Virus record (IMG/VR): IMGVR_UViG_3300030061_000987
Coordinates: 1-30,615 of that record
Direction: 5' to 3' (one strand)
From: a virus
DNA: 30,615 bases
A program made the position numbers and the translations under genes. Shown here in pieces: positions 1 through 30,371 of the stretch; the stretch's first letter is position 1, and each line of letters opens with the position of its first letter. The notes beneath the pieces were generated by a model. That model saw nothing but the letters and a program-made list of their open reading frames with translations. It ran no database searches and was not told the origin of the DNA.

Positions 1-972
1 GATTTGATTATCATTGATGATCCGCATTCGGAGCAGACTGCGATGTCGGCTAGTGGGTTTGACAATGATTGGGATTGGTACACGGGTGGCCCAAGACAGA
101 GATTGCAACCTGGTGGTTCTATTATTCTGGTTATGACGCGGTGGTCGGAGAAGGATTTAACGGGTCAGTTACAGCGTCAGATGATGAAGGATGAGAGGGC
201 GGATCAATGGGAGGTGGTTGAGTTACCTGCGGTCATGCCGAGTGGCAATTCGTGTTGGCCTGAGTTTTGGCCTATAGATGATTTGGAGAAGGTACAGGCA
301 TCGATACCCCCTAGTAAGTGGAATGCTCAGTATCAGCAAAACCCTACGGGGGATGATAATGCGATTATTCCACGAGAGTGGTGGAAGCGTTGGGAGGAGG
401 AGGATATACCAGAGTTAGAGTATGTCATTCAGAGTTATGATACGGCATTTTCGAAGAGCACGACCTCTGATTACAGTGCGATAACGACATGGGGTGTATT
501 TCGTCCTTCGGCTAACAGTCCACGGCCTGCGATTATTTTGTTAGATAGCAAGAAGGGTAGATGGGATTTTCCTGAGTTGAAGAAGGTTGCGTATGATGAG
601 TGGACGTATTGGGACCCTGATACGGTGGTGATAGAGGCGAAAGCTTCTGGAACGCCCTTGACTCACGAACTACGGAACATGGGCATACCTGTTGTGAATT
701 TTACGCCAAGTCGGGGTAATGACAAGGTGTCGAGGGTTCATTCGGTATCGCCATTATTTGAGGCTGGGATGGTTTGGTGTCCTGACAAGTTGTTTGCAGA
801 TGAGATGATTGAGGAGGTTGCAGCTTTTCCAAATGGAGAGTATGATGACTTAGTAGATAGTATGACCCAAGCTTTGATGCGGTATCGTCAGGGTAATTTT
901 GTGACGTTGCCAGACGATGATTGGGACCCAGACGAAGAGACGTACAGCAAGGTTCGCGTGTATTATGGCTGA
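1..972 (+). CDS. terL: Terminase large subunit, C-terminal part (5' truncated)
   Basis: The reading frame is open at the window start, so the N-terminal ATPase part with Walker A lies outside. The first codons give LIIIDDPHS, which fits the end of a Walker B strand (hydrophobic residues then DD). The rest fits the RNase H-like headful nuclease of TerL: YDTAFS with the first Asp at 439-441, VVIEAKASG with Glu at 634-636, and DDLVDSMTQAL at 844-876 carrying the last acidic ligands. The protein would power DNA translocation into the procapsid and cut the concatemer. It overlaps the following gene by 8 bases (ATGGCTGA). Local G+C is clearly higher than in most of the window (about 52% by hand over 361-420). 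Confidence 0.93.
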   Translation, partial: DLIIIDDPHSEQTAMSASGFDNDWDWYTGGPRQRLQPGGSIILVMTRWSEKDLTGQLQRQMMKDERADQWEVVELPAVMPSGNSCWPEFWPIDDLEKVQASIPPSKWNAQYQQNPTGDDNAIIPREWWKRWEEEDIPELEYVIQSYDTAFSKSTTSDYSAITTWGVFRPSANSPRPAIILLDSKKGRWDFPELKKVAYDEWTYWDPDTVVIEAKASGTPLTHELRNMGIPVVNFTPSRGNDKVSRVHSVSPLFEAGMVWCPDKLFADEMIEEVAAFPNGEYDDLVDSMTQALMRYRQGNFVTLPDDDWDPDEETYSKVRVYYG

Positions 973-3784
973 AAAAACAGTTAAGGGCATAGCTGGAGTT
1001 GAGAACATGGGCATCATGTCTCAACTTTTAAGTCCTTTTTTACCCTTTGAGTATGACGTTAAGAAAGAGCCTAGTGTTGCCACAGGGGAGGTAGATGGTT
1101 CTTTGTATTATCGTCAGCAGCCAGGGGAGTATGAATATAAGGGTTTGACTTCTCCTGCTATAGTATCAGGAGGTATTGATTTTTTTAGAAATTTAATTGC
1201 AGATCCTACGGGTACGGCTGGGGGTATTGCTTCGGCTGTAGCAGATGAGGTTAAGGCTTTTCCTGAACGTCAGTTACGCACAGGTATGTCTGGGGGAGAG
1301 GCTTTTAATCCAGAGACGGGCGAGATAGACAGATATGACCCCTTTGCAGTTCCGTTGTTACAGGGAGCTGGAACAGCTGCTTCGATAGCGAGAATTTCGG
1401 ATAAATCTGGCACTGTATTAGGAAACATGGGTGGTCTTCGCAGTAAGTCGGGTCAGGAGAAGTACGACAAAGCCATTGAGATGGTGTCGGAAAATCCAGA
1501 CATTACGCCTGAAGAATTATTTGAGGAGTTAGGGGTTTACTTTGACCCAAGACTTGCAAGTTCTTTTAATCGTCTTTCTCCTGAAGATATTCGTGAATTT
1601 TCACCAGAGATGTTTCGTTTTGAAATGCCAACATATAATACAGCATTGATTAACAAGAATAAGATCGTTGAAAACGAGAGTCTTGAGGAAAGTGATTTTA
1701 AAAAAGACCCAGAACTTTTATTGAATATGTACAAGAATATAAGCGATAACGACAAACTTGGACCCGATGTAGCCAATTCAATGATTGCTAAAATGGATTC
1801 AGAAAAAGGAACAAAAGGAAGTGTACAAGCTTTTCAAAATAGTGACAACGGGGAGTTCCTTCATGCGTCAAGCGAAGGGTTTGGGTTAAAACCAGACACT
1901 CCTTACATAATAGCCGACAATCCTATGGGAAATCCTTTTGTAGAAAGTTTGAATGTTGGAGGGGGAAAATTTATACGATCTAATCGAGTGAAGTTAGAAG
2001 ACATTTTGGATTTTCCAGAGCTATTTGAGGAGTATCCTAAATTAAGAAATGTACATATTGTTCGTCTAAAGCCTTTAGATGCTCGTAATAATTTTGTAGA
2101 TCATGTACAAGATCAAGCAGCTTTCGCGGAAAATGGTTTAGATGGAGAGTATACCATAGCGATGGGCAATACTCCAAATCCCATAATGTTTCAGTCTAAT
2201 CTTATGCATGAAGTACAACACGCTATTCAACATATAGAAAACTTTCCAGAAGGTAGTAGTCCAAAGCTAATACAGGGAAAATTTGATGAAATATTAGATA
2301 TGGTTCAGGAAGAATATCCAAAATCTAAAGGGTTTATGGATGAATTTCTTGCTTTTAAAATATACGAGCAAATGTTTGGAGAGGTTGAAGCAAGGCTTGT
2401 ATCAGAAAGATTTGATTTTATAACAGACCCTGATGCGTCTAGGGAATTTAGTGATCCTCAGTCCGCGAATAAGTTTTTAAGGGAAATTGACCCTGAGTAT
2501 TTCAGGCAGAGATTAATGGGAATAGACCCAGAAAGTATTCTTTTAGAAAATAATCTAGCTTCTGAGTTTATTGAACGTGGATTGCTTGACATTGACGGTG
2601 ACCCTAACTTGCCGTTGAATGAAAAAAACAATTTGCTCCAAAAAAGTGTGAAACTAGTTACCGAAGAAAAATTTTCAGATTTTTCATTACCTGAATTAAT
2701 TACAGCGTGGACGATTGATCAAACCAAAGTGCCTCGTCAAGAAGTGGCAAATAGGCTTAAAAATGATCCTAATGCTGTTGCTTTAAGCAATCAAGCTTTA
2801 GACAATTTAGGGTATGGCGATACTGTTCCAGTATATAGGTTTGTTATGTTAAAAGGTGGAGAGGACGTTTCTGAATTTTTACCAGAGGGGTTGGTTTCGG
2901 CAACTTTAGATCCTAAAAAATTAAAAACAAATATAGATTTTATGGACAAAACTAACCCTGTTTTTACAGATACTACACAAAGAATTGTTCGTTATGATGT
3001 TCCAAGAGACAAAGTTGCAGGATACCTTCCTGCTTTCAGTAATCAAATTGAAAAAAGCGTTAACAAGGCTGTAAAAGCAAAAGGTATTGGTCAAAATGAA
3101 ATATCAGGGCTGAAAAAAGTAACAAACCCTGCTCAACATTCAAAAAATCTTTTAAACTTACAAGATGAAATAATAGTAGATGTCAGTGAGTTAAAACCAA
3201 ATTTCTTTTCAGCAAATGAAAGCCCCCTTGATGTTAGAAGTCTTCGTGCATCAGAAATTCTTTCAACGGTATCAAAAGGTAAGATCGACCCTGATGAATT
3301 TTTTTCAGAAGGAAAAACAGTTTTAAATCCTTTTGATTTCAGAGATAACCCAGAAGCCTTTGAGGCTGCGGAGCGTAAAGCACGACAACAGTTTATAAAT
3401 GAATATTCAGAATTTTTTAATATTAAAAAGATGCAAGACGGTGGCGCGGTGTCCCCGAACTTCGTATCTCGGATCATGGACCCCAAGTCTCCAATGACGC
3501 AAGACAATGCAATGGTTCAGTTGATGAACTTTACGATAGATGGTCGGTTTTTTGTTGCACCCACTGTATTTCCTGTAGATAGTCCTGTTGGTCCTGTGCT
3601 CACGAAATTCTCACCAGACATGGCGATTAATAAGGCTTTTAACACGGGCGAGTTTCTGGAGTTTGATACAAAAGATCAGGCTAGAGAGTTTGCAATGAGA
3701 TTTACGGATGTAATTAACGTAGAAGATAGGCCAAAGCAGAATTTAAAGAAGGGCATAGCTGAATACATCCCCTATATGCAATAA
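965..3784 (+). CDS. Large multidomain virion-associated protein with zincin motif and possible ADP-ribosyltransferase module
   Basis: This 939-residue protein lies between terminase and portal. I chose ATG 965, overlapping the terminase stop, over the in-frame ATG at 917, which would overlap the terminase by 56 bases. Residues 415-419 are HEVQH inside LMHEVQHAIQHIENF, followed by GEVEAR at 472-477. This is the HExxH plus downstream Glu pattern of the zincin-like domain found in phage polyvalent proteins. The stretch before it (DILDFPELFEEYPKLRN) also resembles that domain. Residues 619-740 hold VPVYRF (R625), SAT (645-647) and QDE (733-735), an arrangement like the R / STS / (Q/E)xE signature of ADP-ribosyltransferases. 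A separate C-terminal part starts with MQDGGAV (823-829), a motif repeated in the 391-aa protein at 28348. Such proteins are typically packaged and injected. The zincin call is fairly strong. The ART call is tentative, and I see no signal peptide. Confidence 0.75.
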   Translation: MAEKTVKGIAGVENMGIMSQLLSPFLPFEYDVKKEPSVATGEVDGSLYYRQQPGEYEYKGLTSPAIVSGGIDFFRNLIADPTGTAGGIASAVADEVKAFPERQLRTGMSGGEAFNPETGEIDRYDPFAVPLLQGAGTAASIARISDKSGTVLGNMGGLRSKSGQEKYDKAIEMVSENPDITPEELFEELGVYFDPRLASSFNRLSPEDIREFSPEMFRFEMPTYNTALINKNKIVENESLEESDFKKDPELLLNMYKNISDNDKLGPDVANSMIAKMDSEKGTKGSVQAFQNSDNGEFLHASSEGFGLKPDTPYIIADNPMGNPFVESLNVGGGKFIRSNRVKLEDILDFPELFEEYPKLRNVHIVRLKPLDARNNFVDHVQDQAAFAENGLDGEYTIAMGNTPNPIMFQSNLMHEVQHAIQHIENFPEGSSPKLIQGKFDEILDMVQEEYPKSKGFMDEFLAFKIYEQMFGEVEARLVSERFDFITDPDASREFSDPQSANKFLREIDPEYFRQRLMGIDPESILLENNLASEFIERGLLDIDGDPNLPLNEKNNLLQKSVKLVTEEKFSDFSLPELITAWTIDQTKVPRQEVANRLKNDPNAVALSNQALDNLGYGDTVPVYRFVMLKGGEDVSEFLPEGLVSATLDPKKLKTNIDFMDKTNPVFTDTTQRIVRYDVPRDKVAGYLPAFSNQIEKSVNKAVKAKGIGQNEISGLKKVTNPAQHSKNLLNLQDEIIVDVSELKPNFFSANESPLDVRSLRASEILSTVSKGKIDPDEFFSEGKTVLNPFDFRDNPEAFEAAERKARQQFINEYSEFFNIKKMQDGGAVSPNFVSRIMDPKSPMTQDNAMVQLMNFTIDGRFFVAPTVFPVDSPVGPVLTKFSPDMAINKAFNTGEFLEFDTKDQAREFAMRFTDVINVEDRPKQNLKKGIAEYIPYMQ

Positions 3785-3829: not shown

Positions 3830-6226
3830 ATGGCAAAACCACCTATAAGTCTAATTGAGAATGTAAACCCTCAAATAGATGAGCAAGAGATTGCAGCTGA
3901 GATTGAGATTAATTTACCCGGATCTTTAGATATGTCTGCGCGAGGCGATGACATAGGTATAGAGTTTGAGGATGATGGTGGTGCAATAGTTGATTTTGCA
4001 ATGTCATCTAGGGTTGAGCAAGAAACAGGATTTTATGATAATCTTGCAGAGGTTCTTGATGATAGAGTCCTTGGTTCGATAGCCAGTGACCTTTTATCAG
4101 AGTTTAATTCTAATAAGGCAAGTAGACAGGATTGGGAGGATGCATACGCTAATGGTTTGGAATTACTTGGTTTCAACTATTCCGAGAGAACCGAACCCTT
4201 CAGGGGGGCTTCTGGGGTCACTCACCCGTTACTTGCTGAGGCTGCGGTGCAATTTCAGGCGCAAGCATTTAATGAATTGTTGCCTGCTGGCGGTCCCGTG
4301 CGAACCTCTATTGTCGGAAGCCAGACAAAGGAGAAGGAAGACCAAGCTCAACGTGTAAAAGAGTTTATGAACTATTACATTACTAATGAGATGGAAGAGT
4401 ATACGCCAGAGATGGATCAGATGCTTTTCTATTTACCGTTAGCTGGAAGTACCTTTAAGAAAATTTATTTTGATGATTCTATTGGCAGAGCAGTAAGTAA
4501 GTTTATTCCTGCTGAGAATTTGGTTGTTCCTTACGAAACAACTGATTTGGAGACTTGTCCTAATATTAGCCATGTTGTGCGTATAAATCTAAACGAGTTG
4601 CGTAAGAAGCAACTCTCTGGGTTTTATTTAGATATTCCTGTTCTGCCTCAACAGGGTGAGGATGATGACCTTACAAGTGAGCTTGATAAAATCAGGGGCA
4701 TTGAGCCATCAAACATTGATTATGATGCTACTTTAATAGAGTGTCATGTAGATTTAGATTTAGAAGGTTATGAAGACACGGGCGAAGACGGAGAAAATAC
4801 GGGAATTAAGTTACCGTATGTGGTTACGATTAGTCAAGATAACGGTCAAATACTAGCCATACGTAGAAATTATAAAGAAGATGACCCTGATAAAAGAAAG
4901 GTACAATACTTTGTGCATTATAAGTTTTTACCTGGGTTTGGCTTTTACGGATTAGGTTTAATCCACACTATAGGTGGCTTGTCTCGTTCAGCCACCGCGG
5001 CACTGAGGCAGTTGATTGACGCAGGTACGTTGTCCAACCTCCCAGCGGGCTTTAAAGCTCGTGGACTTCGTATTAGAGATGATGACGATCCTCTTCAGCC
5101 AGGTGAATTCAGAGATGTAGACGCACCTGGTGGGGCTATTAGAGATAGCCTTATGCCTCTCCCATTCAAAGGACCTGATGGTACTTTATTTCAGTTACTT
5201 GGTTTTGTAGTAGATGCAGGGCGAAGGTTTGCCACAATCACAGATATGAAAGTTGGTGATGGAAATCAGCAAGCAGCTGTTGGCACAACCATAGCTCTTA
5301 TGGAACAAGGCTCACGAGTAATGAGTGCAGTACATAAGAGATTGCACTATGCAATGCGGATAGAGTTTAAAATCTTGGCTCGTGTAATGGGTGAGAGTCT
5401 ACCACCTATTTATCCATACGAGTTAGAGGGAGTTGATGCTGCAGTAAAAGCACAGGACTTTGACAATAGGGTAGATATTGTACCTGTTTCTAATCCTAAT
5501 GTATTTAGTCAGGCTCAACGTATTGCTTTGGCTCAAACCCAATTACAATTAGCAGCCCAAGCTCCACAGATGCACAATATGTATGAAGTGTATCGTGATA
5601 TGTATGAAGCATTAGGTGTAAAAAATGTCGATAAATATTTGAAATCACCGCCTCAAGAACAACCAATCCCAAAAGACCCTGCACAAGAGAATATAGATGT
5701 ATTGGATCAGAAAAACCTTTTTGCCTTCCCTATGCAAAACCACCAAGCTCATATACTTTCGCATCTTGTATTTGGTGGAAACCCTCTCGTTGGAGCTTCG
5801 CCAGTTTTGGCAGTGGCTTTACAAAAACACGTTATGCAACACGTTCAGCTTGAAGCGAGGGAAAAAGCTGTACAGGAAATGGGAATTCAAACACAGAATG
5901 TATCGCAACAACAACAAGTACAACTGGATGGTATTTCGGCACAATTTATGGCAGAAGGTATGCAAGCGGTTCAAGCTCTTTCAAGGCAATTAAGTGGTCA
6001 GGGCGAAAAAGATCCTGTTGTTGGTTTAAAACAGCAAGAGTTACAGCTTGAAGCATTGAAAGAACAGAACGATGTTGAGGCTGAACAGGCTGAACTATCT
6101 TTGAAACAGGCTCAACAGATGGATAAATCAAGACAATTTGATGAAAGGCTTGCTAGTCAGGAACAAATAGCTAGAGAAAAAATGGAAGCAGCTAGACAAC
6201 GAGCCATAATGCAAAGGAGAAATTAG
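3830..6226 (+). CDS. Portal protein
   Basis: This 798-residue protein sits directly after the terminase block, the usual portal position, and its length suits the P22/SU10-type portals of marine podovirus-like genomes. Recognisable conserved stretches are RTEPFRGASGVTHPLLAEA (about residues 120-140), LPAGGPVRTS, GLGLIHTIGGLSRSATAALR, and a long helical region with AAVGTTIALMEQGSRVMSAV in the centre. The last 120 residues are rich in Gln, Glu and Ala and probably form a coiled coil or barrel. The N-terminal 60 residues are acidic. The protein would form the dodecameric ring at the packaging vertex, binding terminase during packaging and the adaptor afterwards. A GC-rich patch around 4200-4330 contrasts with the AT-rich surroundings. 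Confidence 0.92.
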   Translation: MAKPPISLIENVNPQIDEQEIAAEIEINLPGSLDMSARGDDIGIEFEDDGGAIVDFAMSSRVEQETGFYDNLAEVLDDRVLGSIASDLLSEFNSNKASRQDWEDAYANGLELLGFNYSERTEPFRGASGVTHPLLAEAAVQFQAQAFNELLPAGGPVRTSIVGSQTKEKEDQAQRVKEFMNYYITNEMEEYTPEMDQMLFYLPLAGSTFKKIYFDDSIGRAVSKFIPAENLVVPYETTDLETCPNISHVVRINLNELRKKQLSGFYLDIPVLPQQGEDDDLTSELDKIRGIEPSNIDYDATLIECHVDLDLEGYEDTGEDGENTGIKLPYVVTISQDNGQILAIRRNYKEDDPDKRKVQYFVHYKFLPGFGFYGLGLIHTIGGLSRSATAALRQLIDAGTLSNLPAGFKARGLRIRDDDDPLQPGEFRDVDAPGGAIRDSLMPLPFKGPDGTLFQLLGFVVDAGRRFATITDMKVGDGNQQAAVGTTIALMEQGSRVMSAVHKRLHYAMRIEFKILARVMGESLPPIYPYELEGVDAAVKAQDFDNRVDIVPVSNPNVFSQAQRIALAQTQLQLAAQAPQMHNMYEVYRDMYEALGVKNVDKYLKSPPQEQPIPKDPAQENIDVLDQKNLFAFPMQNHQAHILSHLVFGGNPLVGASPVLAVALQKHVMQHVQLEAREKAVQEMGIQTQNVSQQQQVQLDGISAQFMAEGMQAVQALSRQLSGQGEKDPVVGLKQQELQLEALKEQNDVEAEQAELSLKQAQQMDKSRQFDERLASQEQIAREKMEAARQRAIMQRRN

Positions 6227-7582: not shown

Positions 7583-7978
7583 ATGTTACAAGCATTAATA
7601 GGTCCAGTGACAGGATTACTAGATAAATTTATTGAAGACAAAGATCAGAAGAATGCCCTCGCCCACGAAATCGCCACCCTCGCCACGAAACAAGCGCACG
7701 AAGCGTCCCTCGCCCAAATCGAAGTTAATAAAGCAGAAGCTACCCACAGATCAATTTTTGTTGCTGGATGGCGGCCATTTACAGGATGGGTCACTTCTTT
7801 CGCGCTTGCGTACCACTTTATTATTGTTCCCTTTATTCTGTTCGCAACTGCGCTCTTTGGTGTCGAAGTTCCTGAACTACCTTCTTTTGATATGGAAACG
7901 TTGAGTACGATTTTGCTTGGAATGCTGGGTCTTGGTGGCTTGCGCAGCTTTGAAAAGTTCAAAGGCTTAACAAAATAG
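7583..7978 (+). CDS. Holin, 3TM GTA-type family
   Basis: This 131-residue protein matches the architecture of the 3TM holins linked to gene-transfer-agent release. It has an amphipathic N-terminal helix (LIGPVTGLLDKFIEDKDQK), a charged helical stretch with AEATHRSIFVAGWRPFTGW (a GWRP motif near 62-65), a strong membrane segment about 68-92 (FALAYHFIIVPFILFATALF), and a last hydrophobic segment about 105-123 (STILLGMLGLGGLRSFEK). It would form lesions in the inner membrane to time lysis. No endolysin gene is visible in this window, so the partner is encoded elsewhere. AAAGG upstream is the probable ribosome site. Confidence 0.82.
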   Translation: MLQALIGPVTGLLDKFIEDKDQKNALAHEIATLATKQAHEASLAQIEVNKAEATHRSIFVAGWRPFTGWVTSFALAYHFIIVPFILFATALFGVEVPELPSFDMETLSTILLGMLGLGGLRSFEKFKGLTK

Positions 7979-8017: not shown

Positions 8018-8215
8018 ATGGACGGCATTTTAATTACTAATCATATCTTAAAACTCATAAATGATAAGAGAAATCAGATATCTGAATTACTTATCTCAAA
8101 CGGGGTTAAAGATATGCTACATTACAGGCATTTGATGGGTAACATCGAGGGTCTAGAATTTTTAGAACAGGAACTCAAGAGCCTGCTAAATAAACAGGAG
8201 TTAGAAGATGAATAA
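8018..8215 (+). CDS. 65-aa hypothetical protein, helical
   Basis: The product (MDGILITNHILKL... ending NKQELEDE) is predicted by eye to be two amphipathic helices: about 3-25 and 42-60, with GVKDMLHYRHLMG between. No family is recognised. The start is ATG 8018 without a visible ribosome site. The gene overlaps the GroES-like gene by 8 bases, and the AGGAG of that gene lies within its 3' end, so the two are translationally coupled. Short two-helix proteins of this type are common next to phage structural genes. No function is assigned. Confidence 0.6.
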   Translation: MDGILITNHILKLINDKRNQISELLISNGVKDMLHYRHLMGNIEGLEFLEQELKSLLNKQELEDE

Positions 8216-8642
8216 AGTTGCTACCGCAGAAAAGACGGAAGCTCCGTCTACGCCTTGGGTAGATCCCAAATCAAGGGTATTAGACCCAACACTCATTGAT
8301 AAATCTTTAAAAGAAAGAATACCTTCACCGACAGGTTGGAGAATCGTTGTTTTGCCTTATAAAGGAAAGTCAAAGACTTCTGGAGGAGTATATATTCCAG
8401 ATCAAGTGATTGAAACAAACGAAATATCTACGACAGTTGGTTATGTTTTAAAAGTCGGATCTCTTGCTTATCAAGATGAAAAAAAGTTTCCAACAGGTTC
8501 TTGGTGTAAAGAGGGTGATTGGATTATGTTTGCAAGATATGCAGGATCAAGATTTAAAATTGAAGGTGGAGAAGTGAGAATACTTAACGATGATGAGATT
8601 CTTGCTACTATATTAGACCCTGAAGATGTTATCAGCATATGA
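8208..8642 (+). CDS. Phage GroES-like co-chaperonin
   Basis: The ATG at 8208 has AGGAG 7 bases upstream. The 144-residue product has a 40-residue N-terminal extension, then a GroES-type beta-barrel: GWRIVVLPYKG, a mobile-loop-like segment KSKTSGGVYIPDQV (about 58-71), VGYVLKVGSLAY, a KEGDWIMFARYAGSRFKI segment matching the GroES 'GD.V.F..Y.G' pattern, and LNDDEILATI near the end. It would cap a GroEL ring, probably the host's, and help fold the capsid protein encoded 2 kb downstream, as T4 gp31 does. No phage GroEL is present here. It is longer than bacterial GroES (about 95 residues) because of the N-terminal arm. Confidence 0.85.
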   Translation: MNKVATAEKTEAPSTPWVDPKSRVLDPTLIDKSLKERIPSPTGWRIVVLPYKGKSKTSGGVYIPDQVIETNEISTTVGYVLKVGSLAYQDEKKFPTGSWCKEGDWIMFARYAGSRFKIEGGEVRILNDDEILATILDPEDVISI

Positions 8643-23608: not shown

Positions 23609-25201
23609 ATGCCATCACCTTTAGTTTCAGCTAACGGATTTTACAAAACTACTACAGTATCAAGTAATAGTTTTTATCCAATTATACCAGCCTCAGGAGG
23701 CTCTGTCAGTGTAAATGTCTCGGTAACAGGGGTACTTGGAACATCTACTCTTGGTGACGAAACGGTTGTAGCAACAGAAAATGTGACTGTAGCAGTCACA
23801 GGAGTTAGTGGAACCACTGCTCTTGGTGACGAGACAGTATCAACTACCGAAAATATAACAGTCGCAGTCACGGGGTTAAGTGGAACATCTACTCTTGGCA
23901 ACGAGACGGTTGTAGCAACACAAAATATAACAGTCGCAGTCACGGGGTTAAGTGGAACTACTACTCTTGGGGACGAAACAGTTGTAGCAACGGAAAATGT
24001 ATCAGTCGCAGTCACAGGTGTTAGTGCTACATCTACCCTTGGCGATGAAACAGTATCTACCACAGAAAACGTATCTTTTAGCGTTACAGGAGTAAGCGGC
24101 ACAACTGCTCTTGGCGATGAGACGGTTGTAGCAACAGAAAACGTATCTTTCAGTGTTACAGGAGTTAGTGCTACAACTGCTCTTGGCGATGAAACAGTTG
24201 TAACAACACAAAACCCGATTGTAGCAGTTACAGGGGTTTTTGGTACTGCTACTCTTGGTGTCATATCAATAGCCACTCAAGGAAACATCTCAGTTGGTGT
24301 TTCAGGTTTCCAATCTACAACAGCTATTGGAAGTGTAACTCCAACGGGAGCAAGTCTTGTTTCTTTAAATGGAGTTTTTGGCACTGGTGAATTGGGTAAT
24401 GTCTCAATTGGGTTAGTAACACCTGTTGATGTAACATCATCTCAATTAAGTGGTAGTATTGGTGATGTAGTTGTTGCGGCAATACAAAATGTAACTGTAG
24501 CTGTAACAGGGGTGAGTGCTACAACTTCAGTAGGTACTTTAACTTTATCTGGCGCATCTAATGTAACAGCATCTGGGGTAACTGGGACTACAGCATTAGG
24601 TACTCCAACGGTTGTAGCCGAAAAAAATGCCATAGTATCTGTTTCAGGAGTAAGTGCTACCTCTAGCCTTGGTGATGAGACAGTTATAACATCTGTCGAG
24701 TTTGCAGTTACTGGTGTTAGTGCTACCTCTAGCCTTGGTTCAGTTAGTATATTAAACTCTATCGTTGTTCCAGTTACAGGCAATACAGTTACTACTGGTT
24801 TAGGTAACACAGAAGAAACTGGCACAAGTTTAGTTGCTGTGACAGGTGTGGCAGGAACAACGGCTCTTGGTAATGCTTCCGTAGAATTAATTACTCCTGT
24901 TGCTGTTACAGGTCAGCAAATCACAGGTCAAATAGGTACTGTAGCCTCTACAGGATCTTGTGTTGTAAGTCTTACAGGATTGTCAATAGAAGCTAAAGTT
25001 GGTATTGTACTTATATATCAAGATATAGATGTAAGTCAGACACCAAATTATTCAGGAGTTACTGTAAGTCAGACACCAAATTATTCAAACGTAGCAACAG
25101 GAGTTACTGCCGGTTACAGTGACGTTTCACCGAGTCAAACACCAAACTACTCAGGATCTACACCAAACCAAACACCTGATTGGAAAAAGGAAGCAGCATA
25201 A
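23609..25201 (+). CDS. Repeat-built fibre protein (24-residue tandem repeats)
   Basis: This 530-residue protein consists mostly of tandem beta-type units of about 24 residues with consensus VTGVSGTTALGDETVVATEN. Seven to eight are near-identical (about residues 35-225); looser copies extend to about residue 465. The C-terminal 55 residues hold a second repeat, SQTPNYS, at 11-residue spacing, ending in a basic EKKW-like tail (WKKEAA). There is one Cys near 450 and no enzyme motif. It likely forms a shaft of repeated strands on the fibre. It overlaps the next gene by one base (TAATG). Confidence 0.72.
   Translation: MPSPLVSANGFYKTTTVSSNSFYPIIPASGGSVSVNVSVTGVLGTSTLGDETVVATENVTVAVTGVSGTTALGDETVSTTENITVAVTGLSGTSTLGNETVVATQNITVAVTGLSGTTTLGDETVVATENVSVAVTGVSATSTLGDETVSTTENVSFSVTGVSGTTALGDETVVATENVSFSVTGVSATTALGDETVVTTQNPIVAVTGVFGTATLGVISIATQGNISVGVSGFQSTTAIGSVTPTGASLVSLNGVFGTGELGNVSIGLVTPVDVTSSQLSGSIGDVVVAAIQNVTVAVTGVSATTSVGTLTLSGASNVTASGVTGTTALGTPTVVAEKNAIVSVSGVSATSSLGDETVITSVEFAVTGVSATSSLGSVSILNSIVVPVTGNTVTTGLGNTEETGTSLVAVTGVAGTTALGNASVELITPVAVTGQQITGQIGTVASTGSCVVSLTGLSIEAKVGIVLIYQDIDVSQTPNYSGVTVSQTPNYSNVATGVTAGYSDVSPSQTPNYSGSTPNQTPDWKKEAA
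23720..24250 (+). repeat. 72-bp tandem repeats in fibre gene
   Basis: About seven tandem copies of a 72-base unit, each encoding one 24-residue repeat. Shared blocks such as CTTGG(T/C)GA(C/T)GA and GTCACAGG recur every 72 bases, and adjacent copies differ at scattered positions. More divergent copies continue to about 25000. The period is a multiple of three, so gain or loss of copies keeps the frame. Confidence 0.85.
25031..25154 (+). repeat. Short in-frame repeats encoding SQTPNYS
   Basis: Two identical 24-base copies lie at 25031-25054 and 25064-25087, 33 bases apart. A diverged third copy is at about 25130-25153 and a shorter fourth (NQTPDW) follows. They encode the VSQTPNYS motif at the C-terminus of the fibre protein. 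Confidence 0.88.
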
Positions 25202-28118: not shown

Positions 28119-28348
28119 TGGCAAACGTAGGTGATGTTCCACCAAGACTACCAACTGCACCTGATGAATACAATGAACCTTTCATGACAGACCTAATCAG
28201 GGCGTTAGAGGTTTTTATATCACAAGAAAGAAATCCAGGTGAGATGCGTGGAACAAAAATTACGTTGACCGATTTACCAACATCTACTTCTGGTTTAGAA
28301 ACAGGAGCATTGTATAATGATAGCGGAACTGTTAAGATAGTAACATAA
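28118..28348 (+). CDS. Small conserved virion-type protein
   Basis: The 76-residue product is coupled by TAATG on both sides. It has a Pro-rich N-terminus (VGDVPPRLPTAPDEYNEPF), a short amphipathic helix (MTDLIRALEVFISQE) and a C-terminal LPTSTSGLETGALYNDSGTV ending in KIVT. This C-terminal pattern (GLxxGxLYND-G-xKIV) is common to small proteins next to fibre or nozzle genes. It could be a trimeric fibre or nozzle tip component. Function is not proven. Confidence 0.68.
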   Translation: MANVGDVPPRLPTAPDEYNEPFMTDLIRALEVFISQERNPGEMRGTKITLTDLPTSTSGLETGALYNDSGTVKIVT

Positions 28349-29523
28349 TGGCAAGTATTTTCGACAGAATTGGTGATACCCTTGAAGATGTGAAGGACGC
28401 TTTCGTAGAACAGGCTCCTACCATACTTCCAATTGCATTAAATATATTAGCCCCCGGTATGGGAACAATTGCAGCAACCGCACTGGGTGCAGGCATTGGA
28501 TCATTGCTCAGAGGAGATGATTTAGACGATGCCGTTAGAAATGCTGCGATTGGTGGCGCAACAGGAGCCGCGTTCCGTGGACTTGGTGGGGGCATGGAAG
28601 GTATAAAACAAGACTTATCGCAAGGAGGTCAATTCTTTGGAGATCCCTTCAGTGCAAAACAATATGCGCCTATAGTCGGGGGAGATTTTGACCCTAGTTT
28701 TCAAGAATTGTCTAAAGAATCAGTAGAAAGTACACAAACGTCTCCTGACGCTGTTGCAGAATTAACAGAACCTTCTATTTTTAAACCACTTCAAGGATCT
28801 CCAGATGCTTCAGCAATTACAAATAGTCAAGAGTACGCGGATTTAAGCGCAAAATTGGGACCAGAAAAAGCTTTTGAAGTTCTATCCGAAAAATACACTC
28901 CCTCTATTTTACAAAGATCTGCTCTTCCGTTAGCAGGGATCACTGCACTTTTGATGAATCCTGAAGAGGAAGAATTTGAAGAATACGGTGATTTTCTGAC
29001 AGGGGAAGAACTACTTGCTGAAAACCCTGAAAGATTTATGATTGATGTTTCAAGACCTGAAAGGGAGGATACAGATTTTGTACTGCCTTTCGAAGATTAC
29101 TACAATCAAGATTTGCTAAGAAGACCAATGTTTGCAGCCAAAGGTGGTGTTGCAGAAACTAAAAATACTCCCATGTTTGCATCTGGATTAGATATTTTAA
29201 TGAATAATATGCTACCAATGGAAGACGGTGGGGCTGTTCCTAATAAATATAAGGGATTTTCCAAACTTCCTGAAGCTGTTCAACAGAAAATAAGTCCAAA
29301 ATTAGCTGAAAGATTTGCTAAAGGAGGGGTTTCTTTCCCTAGAAGAACAGGCGGTATTGGACCAGGGGAAGGTTCAGGCACAAAAGATGATGTTCCTGCA
29401 ATGCTCATGGACGGAGAGTTTGTGATGACAAGGGATGCTGTTAAAGGCGTAGGAAATGGTAATCTTAACAAAGGTATCAGTACAATGTATAGTATGATGG
29501 ATAAGTTTGAGAGGATGGCATAA
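28348..29523 (+). CDS. Putative internal/ejection protein with DGEFVM motif
   Basis: The 391-residue product is coupled by TAATG on both sides. The N-terminus has a Gly/Ala-rich hydrophobic part (about 24-85: APTILPIALNILAPGMGTIA, ATALGAGIGSLL, AAIGGATGAAF), like glycine-zipper membrane-inserting helices. A polar middle follows. The C-terminal part has AAKGGVAET, MEDGGAV (291-297), FAKGGVSFP and a conserved GIGPGEGSGTKDDVPAMLMD / DGEFVMT (355-361) / AVKGVGNGN segment. The latter is widespread in marine phages. A role in DNA ejection or in the virion interior fits, but the DGEFVM segment has no known function. Confidence 0.7.
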   Translation: MASIFDRIGDTLEDVKDAFVEQAPTILPIALNILAPGMGTIAATALGAGIGSLLRGDDLDDAVRNAAIGGATGAAFRGLGGGMEGIKQDLSQGGQFFGDPFSAKQYAPIVGGDFDPSFQELSKESVESTQTSPDAVAELTEPSIFKPLQGSPDASAITNSQEYADLSAKLGPEKAFEVLSEKYTPSILQRSALPLAGITALLMNPEEEEFEEYGDFLTGEELLAENPERFMIDVSRPEREDTDFVLPFEDYYNQDLLRRPMFAAKGGVAETKNTPMFASGLDILMNNMLPMEDGGAVPNKYKGFSKLPEAVQQKISPKLAERFAKGGVSFPRRTGGIGPGEGSGTKDDVPAMLMDGEFVMTRDAVKGVGNGNLNKGISTMYSMMDKFERMA

Positions 29524-30371
29524 TGGCTGTTACAACCCAAATAGTTTCAGAATCTCCTGAAGTAGAGGCTCGTAAACTTGGGTTAATGGATTCTGCAAAG
29601 GAATTAGTGCAAGATCCTTTAACCCCTCCAGATTATCAATATGCAGGTTTGACTCAATTACAAAAGGGTGCCTTTGACGATTTGCTAGAAGGTGGACTGG
29701 GAGATTTTTTACCGTTTTTACAAGAAGCAGCCAGAGAATATAGAGCCTCTGGAGATGCAATCACTGCGTCAGATATTTCACAATATATGAATCCGTACAC
29801 AGATGAAGTCATCGGTCGTGTTAGCGATGATTTAACCCGTCAAAGACAAATGTTAGACCCTACTTTAGCAGCGGACGCAATATCAGCAGGTGCGTTTTCT
29901 GGAAACAGAAGAGATATACGAGCTGGATTAGCTGACGAAGCAACTCTGAAACAATTAGGAGAGATAAGCTCAACGTTAAGATCTCAAGGATTTCAAAGTG
30001 CGTTAGGTGCTGCAGAAAACGAAAAAGCAAGACAAGCTGTATTAGCCTCTGGTTTAGGCTCTATAGCTCAAACATTACCTTCTCTTACTCAACAAGAACT
30101 TGGATTTATGGTTGATGTCGGAACTGCGGAGCAAGCACAAAAGCAAGCAGAGCTTGATACGCAGAGACAGAACATTTTACAAGCAGATTTTGAACCCTAT
30201 CAAAGATTAAGTTTTCTTTCTGATATATATCAAGGCGCACCATCAAGCAGTATGACAAACGTTTTTGGGGCAAGCCCAACACAACCATCTCCCTTTCAGC
30301 AATTATTTGGATATGGTCTTGCAGGATTATCCGCTGCGGGTGGGGCTAAACAACTAGGACTATTCGGATAA
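29523..30371 (+). CDS. Putative internal virion / tail protein, helical
   Basis: The 282-residue product is coupled by TAATG on both sides. It has YAGLTQLQKGAFDDLLEGGL, DISQYMNPYTDEVIGRVSDD (about 84-104), then LTRQRQMLDPTLAADAISAG, AFSGNRRDI, and a long helical body rich in Gln, Ala and Leu (QTLPSLTQQELGFMVDVGTA). The C-terminus has a small Gly/Ala hydrophobic part (FGYGLAGLSAAGGAKQLGLF). The YMNPYT module is known from marine phage proteins next to the nozzle. Internal or ejection protein is the best guess from position and composition. Confidence 0.65.
   Translation: MAVTTQIVSESPEVEARKLGLMDSAKELVQDPLTPPDYQYAGLTQLQKGAFDDLLEGGLGDFLPFLQEAAREYRASGDAITASDISQYMNPYTDEVIGRVSDDLTRQRQMLDPTLAADAISAGAFSGNRRDIRAGLADEATLKQLGEISSTLRSQGFQSALGAAENEKARQAVLASGLGSIAQTLPSLTQQELGFMVDVGTAEQAQKQAELDTQRQNILQADFEPYQRLSFLSDIYQGAPSSSMTNVFGASPTQPSPFQQLFGYGLAGLSAAGGAKQLGLFG

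What the first reader, a model, noticed from the sequence alone, without database searches (positions are those of the whole stretch)
965..3784. Zincin-like motif and possible ADP-ribosyltransferase module in one protein next to terminase
Seen: HEVQH (H415/E416/H419) followed by GEVEAR at 472-477; then R625, SAT 645-647 and QDE 733-735 in the order R / S-T / QxE. Known: zincin-like and ADP-ribosyltransferase domains occur in phage polyvalent proteins that are packaged and injected. Inference: this is an injected effector with two host-directed activities, located between terL and portal rather than near internal virion genes.
Basis: partly seen in the sequence, partly recalled or inferred. Interest (0 to 1): 0.7.

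Follow-up and report, generated by a model that had tools for sequence, protein, structure and literature searches.

The report
Swappable phage effector between terL and portal
The gene between the DNA-packaging motor and the portal of this marine-type phage encodes a multi-domain protein with a zinc-protease-like domain and a previously undescribed ADP-ribosyltransferase-like domain, and in close relatives this spot is a cassette whose enzyme part is exchanged between near-identical phages.

Summary
In detail: every motif lies at the stated residue of the 939-aa ORF at 965-3784. Motif matching alone is weak (R/S-x-S/QxE occurs in 93% of shuffles, HExxH in 0.4%), but homologues settle it. HExxH is kept in 57/57 non-redundant relatives, and 39/57 keep GExEAR downstream across inserts of 31-250 aa. 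Relatives match Pfam metallopeptidase families, and the model is zincin-like. The C-terminal module is a separate family with invariant R625, S645-x-[ST] and Q733-x-E735. Its AlphaFold model (pLDDT 80) retrieves almost only ADP-ribosyltransferases, with weak scores; R, S and QxE sit on the canonical strands. No Pfam ART model hits it, and it differs from the H-Y-D ART known from polyvalent proteins. The terL-portal position is the rule: relatives fill it with head + zincin + GNAT, + ART-PolyVal, + this ART, or nothing recognised, often with a conserved GGxV tail. Pairs with portals 96-100% identical carry unrelated middles, with breakpoints at the tail. Best reading: a polyvalent virion effector in a polymorphic slot. 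Packaging, injection and catalysis are untested; the zincin may self-process rather than attack the host.

The parts
965..3784 (+). 939-aa polyvalent-type protein: head domain, zincin-like domain, ART-like domain, tail
   Evidence: start ATG at 965 overlaps the terL stop at 972
1013..1669 (+). head domain (residues ~17-235), shared by slot proteins with different C-terminal enzymes; ends in an FRFEMP motif
   Evidence: no relative found in phages or genome contigs
1982..2419 (+). zincin-like metallopeptidase domain (residues ~340-485)
2207..2221 (+). HEVQH (415-419), predicted zinc ligands H415/H419 and general base E416
   Evidence: 57/57 non-redundant relatives; in helix 122-140 of the model
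2378..2395 (+). GEVEAR (472-477), predicted third ligand E473 or E475
   Evidence: 39/57 relatives with variable inserts; in the following helix 168-198 of the model
2687..3184 (+). ART-like core (residues ~575-740) with R-S-QxE signature
2837..2839 (+). R625, predicted NAD+-binding arginine on strand 1
   Evidence: 17/17; model residue 73 in strand 68-77
2897..2905 (+). S645-A-T647, S-x-[ST] motif on strand 2
   Evidence: 17/17; model residue 93 in strand 91-95
3161..3169 (+). Q733-D-E735, QxE motif at the start of the last core strand
   Evidence: 19/19; model residues 181-183, strand 183-187
3185..3430 (+). helical extension of the ART family (residues ~741-822)
   Evidence: conserved length and helices in relatives
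3440..3781 (+). C-terminal tail: GGAV (826-829), ~100-aa insert shared with L038, terminal GIAEYIPYMQ (930-939)
1..972 (+). terminase large subunit (5' part outside the window)
   Evidence: phrog_38 E 3e-64
3830..6226 (+). portal protein
   Evidence: phrog_1216 E 1e-53; 50-59% identical to HTVC023P, HTVC027P, 023Pt_psg01 and DSL-LC04

Best explanation
The protein is a phage polyvalent effector made late with the packaging genes. Shown by sequence and model: a lineage-specific head, a zincin-like metallopeptidase domain, an ADP-ribosyltransferase-like domain of the R-S-QxE type, and a C-terminal tail. The terL-portal interval of this phage group is a cassette slot whose middle is exchanged between near-identical phages while head and tail stay. 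Inferred: head and/or tail bring the protein into the procapsid near the portal and it is ejected with the DNA; the zincin releases or matures the enzyme part; the ART part uses NAD+ to modify a host macromolecule early in infection. Because GNAT and a different ART family replace it in the same slot, the common task is probably covalent modification of host components (takeover or counter-defence). A QxE rather than ExE motif suggests a target other than arginine (own knowledge of C3-like and pierisin-like ARTs; not tested).
For: Zincin: 398+ tblastn relatives in IMG/VR and relatives in F116-like proteins annotated PLxRFG or structural; HExxH 57/57 and GExEAR 39/57; relatives hit DUF6782 putative metallopeptidase (11/24, best 2.7e-10), LPD23, MPTase-PolyVal, Peptidase_M78 and SprT-like; profile-to-PDB hits to a neutral metalloprotease (E 0.06) and IrrE (0.34); model neighbours include HExxH ChlB, SprT, lethal factor, BlaR1, ACE2 and vibriolysin. 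ART: conserved R/S/QxE, pLDDT 79.8 with those residues on strands 1, 2 and 5, 25 of the first 26 structure rows are ARTs and one is IcmQ: Vis Z 4.8, MbcT 4.8, PltA, pertussis S1, ExoS, TreX, Certhrax, ParT. Slot; 68/68 tail-bearing ORFs with enough downstream DNA abut portal; unrelated middles between DNA-identical flanks; ART-PolyVal and GNAT in sister proteins. Literature frame: PMC5512222, PMC9503650.
Against: No ART Pfam model hits this family even at E 10. Foldseek E-values are 0.46 or worse and VIA Z is below 5; zincin Foldseek itself found nothing convincing and its VIA list mixes in helical artefacts. Many ART homologues in the slot lack a detectable zincin (L009-L015, L103-L117), so the zincin is not needed to deploy the ART. 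No virion proteomics; the nearest cultured phages (HTVC023P, HTVC027P, DSL-LC04) carry unrelated slot proteins.
Confidence: 0.66

Rival explanations
1. The zincin is the only host-directed activity (or is purely structural), and the ART-like domain is a degenerate or binding domain with no catalysis.
For: No Pfam ART match; weak structural scores.
Against: R, S, QxE and neighbouring residues are invariant in a family down to 25-30% identity, which a dead domain would not keep. The domain stands alone or without zincin in many slots and is exchanged with recognised ART-PolyVal.
Confidence: 0.12
2. The protein is not packaged: it is a late cytoplasmic protein (assembly protease, superinfection exclusion or host shut-off) that merely sits in the packaging operon.
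For: Slot content is dispensable and variable, unlike essential virion parts. No virion data.
Against: Polyvalent proteins with these domains lie among virion genes and several are packaged (N4 vRNAP, P1 DdrB; PMC5512222). In L007 the zincin/ART protein continues into a GEFVLPADV segment like the GEFVMTRDAV segment of the window protein at 28348-29523, whose matched stretch hits tape-measure families.
Confidence: 0.27
3. The conserved GGxV tail is only a recombination flank hitch-hiking with the portal gene, not a functional signal.
For: Breakpoints fall at the tail and the tail always abuts portal. Third codon positions are fairly conserved too (68%).
Against: Codon pattern 79/88/68% identity at positions 1/2/3 and synonymous codon changes at 33% of identical residues indicate protein-level constraint. 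Dissimilar tails in other lineages keep GGxV and a terminal G[IV][GA] segment.
Confidence: 0.4

Closest known systems
Phage polyvalent proteins with MPTase-PolyVal / DUF6782 zincin (N4 vRNAP, P1 DdrB, F116-like PLxRFG proteins; Iyer et al. 2017, PMC5512222)
   Same: Zincin as hub domain joined to unrelated effector domains, encoded among late virion genes; LPD23-like segment before the zincin; detectable sequence similarity of the zincin to F116 proteins
   Different: Small (939 aa) and in a fixed terL-portal slot; the ART is of R-S-QxE type, whereas ARTs of polyvalent proteins were described as H-Y-D (Tox-ART-HYD2)
ART-PolyVal (PF18760)
   Same: ADP-ribosyltransferase-like domain in the same slot, sometimes after the same head, zincin and tail (L030, L034, L161)
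   Different: No detectable sequence relation; different active-site residues
T4 Alt / VIP2 and Mod R-S-E ART families
   Same: R-S-E type active site; Alt is packaged and injected (PMC5512222, PMC9503650)
   Different: QxE motif, no sequence match, fusion to a zincin polyvalent scaffold; [quoted passage not shown]
MuF polymorphic toxins of temperate phages (PMC5576092)
   Same: Constant part plus variable C-terminal effector, including ARTs, next to the portal in the packaging module
   Different: No MuF domain; gene upstream of portal rather than downstream; podoviruses related to pelagiphages, no prophage relatives found by our scans; conserved tail after the variable part

Membership tests
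Phage polyvalent protein | Two or more unrelated enzymatic domains in one polypeptide | tested here: met
   zincin-like and ART-like domains
Phage polyvalent protein | Encoded among late/virion genes of a portal-terminase phage | tested here: met
   between terL and portal
Phage polyvalent protein | Packaged and delivered into the host | not testable with these tools
   needs virion proteomics / infection assays
Zincin-like metallopeptidase (MPTase-PolyVal / DUF6782 type) | HExxH plus downstream Glu in the next helix | tested here: met
Zincin-like metallopeptidase (MPTase-PolyVal / DUF6782 type) | Match to a curated family model | tested here: inconclusive
   the window protein itself has no Pfam hit; 11/24 homologues hit DUF6782 and 4/24 MPTase-PolyVal
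Zincin-like metallopeptidase (MPTase-PolyVal / DUF6782 type) | Zincin fold | tested here: inconclusive
   pLDDT 75.6; best rows are mostly HExxH enzymes but Z 5.0 or less
Zincin-like metallopeptidase (MPTase-PolyVal / DUF6782 type) | Zinc binding and proteolysis | not testable with these tools
   -
ADP-ribosyltransferase, R-S-E clade | R on strand 1, S-x-S/T on strand 2, [QE]xE at strand 5 | tested here: met
ADP-ribosyltransferase, R-S-E clade | ART fold | tested here: inconclusive
   25 of the first 26 rows are ARTs, but Z 4.8 or less and Foldseek E at least 0.46
ADP-ribosyltransferase, R-S-E clade | NAD+-dependent transferase activity | not testable with these tools
   -
ART-PolyVal (Tox-ART-HYD2) | Match to PF18760 | tested here: not met
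   no match by any of 19 homologues at E 10
ART-PolyVal (Tox-ART-HYD2) | H-Y-D active site | tested here: not met
   R / S / QxE conserved instead
MuF polymorphic toxin | MuF domain | tested here: not met
   no Pfam family at E 10
MuF polymorphic toxin | Gene immediately downstream of portal | tested here: not met
   gene is upstream of portal

The most novel reading that the evidence does not exclude
A phage effector-delivery cassette: a constant head and a constant GGxV tail load interchangeable enzymes (this new R-S-QxE ART, ART-PolyVal, GNAT, others) into the virion at the portal, and recombination at head and tail swaps the enzyme between near-identical marine phages, in the manner of polymorphic toxins.
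Probability: 0.42. Interest if true: 0.78.

Novelty: new variant of a known kind. Interest (0 to 1): 0.6.

Why it matters
If the slot is a delivery cassette, its constant head and tail point to short signals that send a protein into the phage head and out with the DNA, which are poorly understood. The variable middle becomes a ready list of enzymes that marine phages use against host cells. The R-S-QxE ART family would add a second ART type to polyvalent proteins and can be tested directly by enzymology.

Tried and rejected
Pfam on the window protein: nothing. PHROGs gives only phrog_13543 of unknown function. phmmer against PDB: a 33-residue hit to 8pjs outside both domains, ignored. The ART domain finds nothing in 50,697 phage records and nothing in 84,980 prokaryote genomes; the head domain finds nothing in either. 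The motif trio as evidence was rejected, since 93% of shuffles match it. HMM search of slot proteins from HTVC023P, HTVC027P, 023Pt_psg01 and DSL-LC04 with head, zincin, ART and C models: no hit. Foldseek on the zincin model: no useful hit. Spatial clustering of catalytic residues could not be computed (no coordinates supplied). MuF and ART-PolyVal membership were considered and not met. DUF4230, RsgA and similar sub-threshold Pfam hits in single ART rows were taken as chance.

Full report
Observation. The ORF at 965-3784 (+) translates to 939 aa and holds all stated motifs at the stated residues. It starts inside the end of terL (stop at 972) and stops 45 nt before portal at 3830. The contig is an IMG/VR virus record. 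Its nearest cultured relatives by terL and portal are the pelagiphages HTVC023P and HTVC027P, 023Pt_psg01 and DSL-LC04.

Chance. HExxH is rare in shuffles (0.4%) and HExxH...GExEAR was never seen in 20,000, but the loose R / S-x-S/T / [QE]xE pattern occurs in 93% of shuffles. The weight comes from homologues.

Zincin-like domain (about residues 340-485). IMG/VR holds at least 398 relatives by tblastn. HExxH is present in 57 of 57 non-redundant relatives. GExEAR, which was not part of the seed patterns, follows in 39 of 57, although the insert between them ranges from 31 to 250 aa. HExxH itself was part of one of two seed patterns, so its conservation is partly by selection; the rows of A4 were chosen for having GExEAR. 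Among ORFs of the same loci HExxH is confined to slot proteins (29/38 against 0/142). Homologues match DUF6782 'putative metallopeptidase', LPD23, MPTase-PolyVal, Peptidase_M78 and SprT-like, and a profile of them reaches a neutral metalloprotease and IrrE weakly in PDB. The model (pLDDT 75.6) puts HExxH and GExEAR on two successive helices, as described for these domains (PMC5512222). Its structural neighbours are largely HExxH enzymes (ChlB HExxH domain, SprT, lethal factor, BlaR1, ACE2, vibriolysin), at Z 5.0 or less and mixed with helical artefacts. Pseudomonas F116-like phages carry the same domain in proteins annotated structural or PLxRFG.

ART-like domain (about residues 553-830). Relatives at 25-52% identity were found only in viral contigs; none in phage records or prokaryote genomes. 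R625 and S645-x-[ST] are invariant in 17/17 rows that cover them and Q733-x-E735 in 19/19 (QDE was partly a seed). The model has pLDDT 79.8; R lies in the first core strand, S in the second, and QxE at the start of the last, the canonical layout. Foldseek ranks ParT first with a poor E-value (0.46). Re-alignment lists 54 chains at Z 2 or more; 25 of the first 26 rows are ADP-ribosyltransferases (Vis Z 4.8, rmsd 4.0, 129 aligned; MbcT 4.8; PltA, pertussis S1, ExoS, TreX, Certhrax, ParT, CARDS and others) and the remaining one is IcmQ. Each match is weak, but the list is homogeneous. No ART Pfam model hits any of 19 members. The active-site type differs from the H-Y-D ARTs described in polyvalent proteins, and R-S-E (Alt-clade) ARTs were reported as absent from genuine polyvalent proteins (PMC5512222); the frequent viral R-S-E families are Alt/VIP2 and Mod (PMC9503650). 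I therefore call it a new, divergent R-S-QxE ART-like family, inferred and not assayed.

The slot. In relatives the same position, terL - X - portal, is occupied by proteins that combine the same head (residues 17-235 here) with a zincin and variable parts. They can be head-zincin-GNAT (L004, L005, L043), head-zincin-ART-PolyVal (L030 above the Pfam cut-off; L034, L161), GNAT-ART-PolyVal (L133, L143), ART alone (L009-L015, L103-L108), GNAT-ART (L114), ART with DUF6884 (L122), or no recognised enzyme. In Planktothrix phage Pag-Yong1 terL and portal adjoin and in Caulobacter phage GB2A only a tRNA separates them. In cultured pelagiphages and DSL-LC04 the slot holds other proteins, one with a PcfJ domain.

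Tail. Most slot proteins end in a short segment that begins GGx[VI] (30/35 against 17/205 other ORFs, Fisher 4e-21). One tail type of about 40 aa follows GNAT, ART-PolyVal, the R-S-QxE ART, or a bare zincin. A search with this tail returned 72 ORFs, and all 68 with enough downstream DNA abut portal. Codon-position identities of 79/88/68% indicate protein-level constraint, although a recombination-flank effect cannot be excluded. The window's protein has GGAV at 826, an insert shared with L038, and the ending GIAEYIPYMQ, a variant of GIAQFIKHMQ / GVAGFIPYMLQ in its nearest portal relatives.

Swapping. Pairs of contigs with 96-99% identical DNA in tail and portal, and in four of the pairs also 5' of the slot, have unrelated slot middles: L151 (GNAT) against L152 (ART-PolyVal); L114 (GNAT plus this ART family) against L153 (zincin plus ART-PolyVal); L163 against L195; L043 against L162 and L025. 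The similarity resumes at or within 54 nt of the tail start. This is shown by sequence and does not depend on function. It is analogous to MuF polymorphic toxins of temperate phages (PMC5576092), but without a MuF domain and upstream of portal.

Mechanism. Most likely the protein is made late, enters the procapsid near the portal with the help of head and/or tail, and is ejected with the DNA; the zincin processes the polypeptide or a host protein, and the ART modifies a host macromolecule with ADP-ribose. Shown: the domains as families, conserved residues, the slot, and swapping. Inferred: packaging, injection, catalysis and target. Support for virion association beyond position is that in L007 the zincin/ART protein continues into a GEFVLPADV segment resembling the segment of the window protein 28348-29523 that matches tape-measure families. 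Against a tight zincin-ART partnership, many ART proteins in the slot have no detectable zincin.

Verdict. The protein is a new variant of polyvalent proteins. Of more general interest than the two motifs is the exchangeable slot with constant head and tail.

Noticed in passing
window 28348-29523: Protein ends in DGGAVP...GEFVMTRDAVKGVGNGNLNKGI; the matched C-terminal stretch hits several tape-measure and unknown PHROG families and also begins with GGxV. It sits next to a DNA-ejection-like protein at 29523-30371.
   Followed up: partly
window 8208-8642 and 7583-7978: A GroES-like co-chaperonin (phrog_3188) and a holin (phrog_3427) lie between portal and the head genes; GroES downstream of portal is also seen in HTVC023P, DSL-LC04 and Pag-Yong1.
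   Followed up: partly
window ~25000-25200: C-terminus of the 530-aa ORF 23609-25201 contains repeated SQTPNYS-like units (SQTPNYSNVATGVTAGYSDVSPSQTPNYSGSTPNQTPDWK).
   Followed up: no
L127:3319-5571 (023Pt_psg01) and L126:2906-5581 (HTVC027P gp42): Slot proteins of cultured-type pelagiphages: one with an HEAAH motif (possible independent zincin, by eye), one with a weak HTH hit and an HNH-like stretch (by eye); neither matches the head, zincin or ART models.
   Followed up: partly
L122:596-4618: Slot protein combining the R-S-QxE ART with DUF6884 (E 4e-10, above cut-off).
   Followed up: no
L150:31-411 and L199:3271-3519: Very short ORFs (127 and 83 aa) that consist mainly of the conserved tail directly before portal, possible cassette remnants or minimal slot proteins.
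   Followed up: no
L010:2550-3206, L014:2-481, L108:2220-3161: Additional ORFs in the same terL-portal interval that also end in GGx[VI]-containing tails, suggesting the tail is not limited to the main slot gene.
   Followed up: partly
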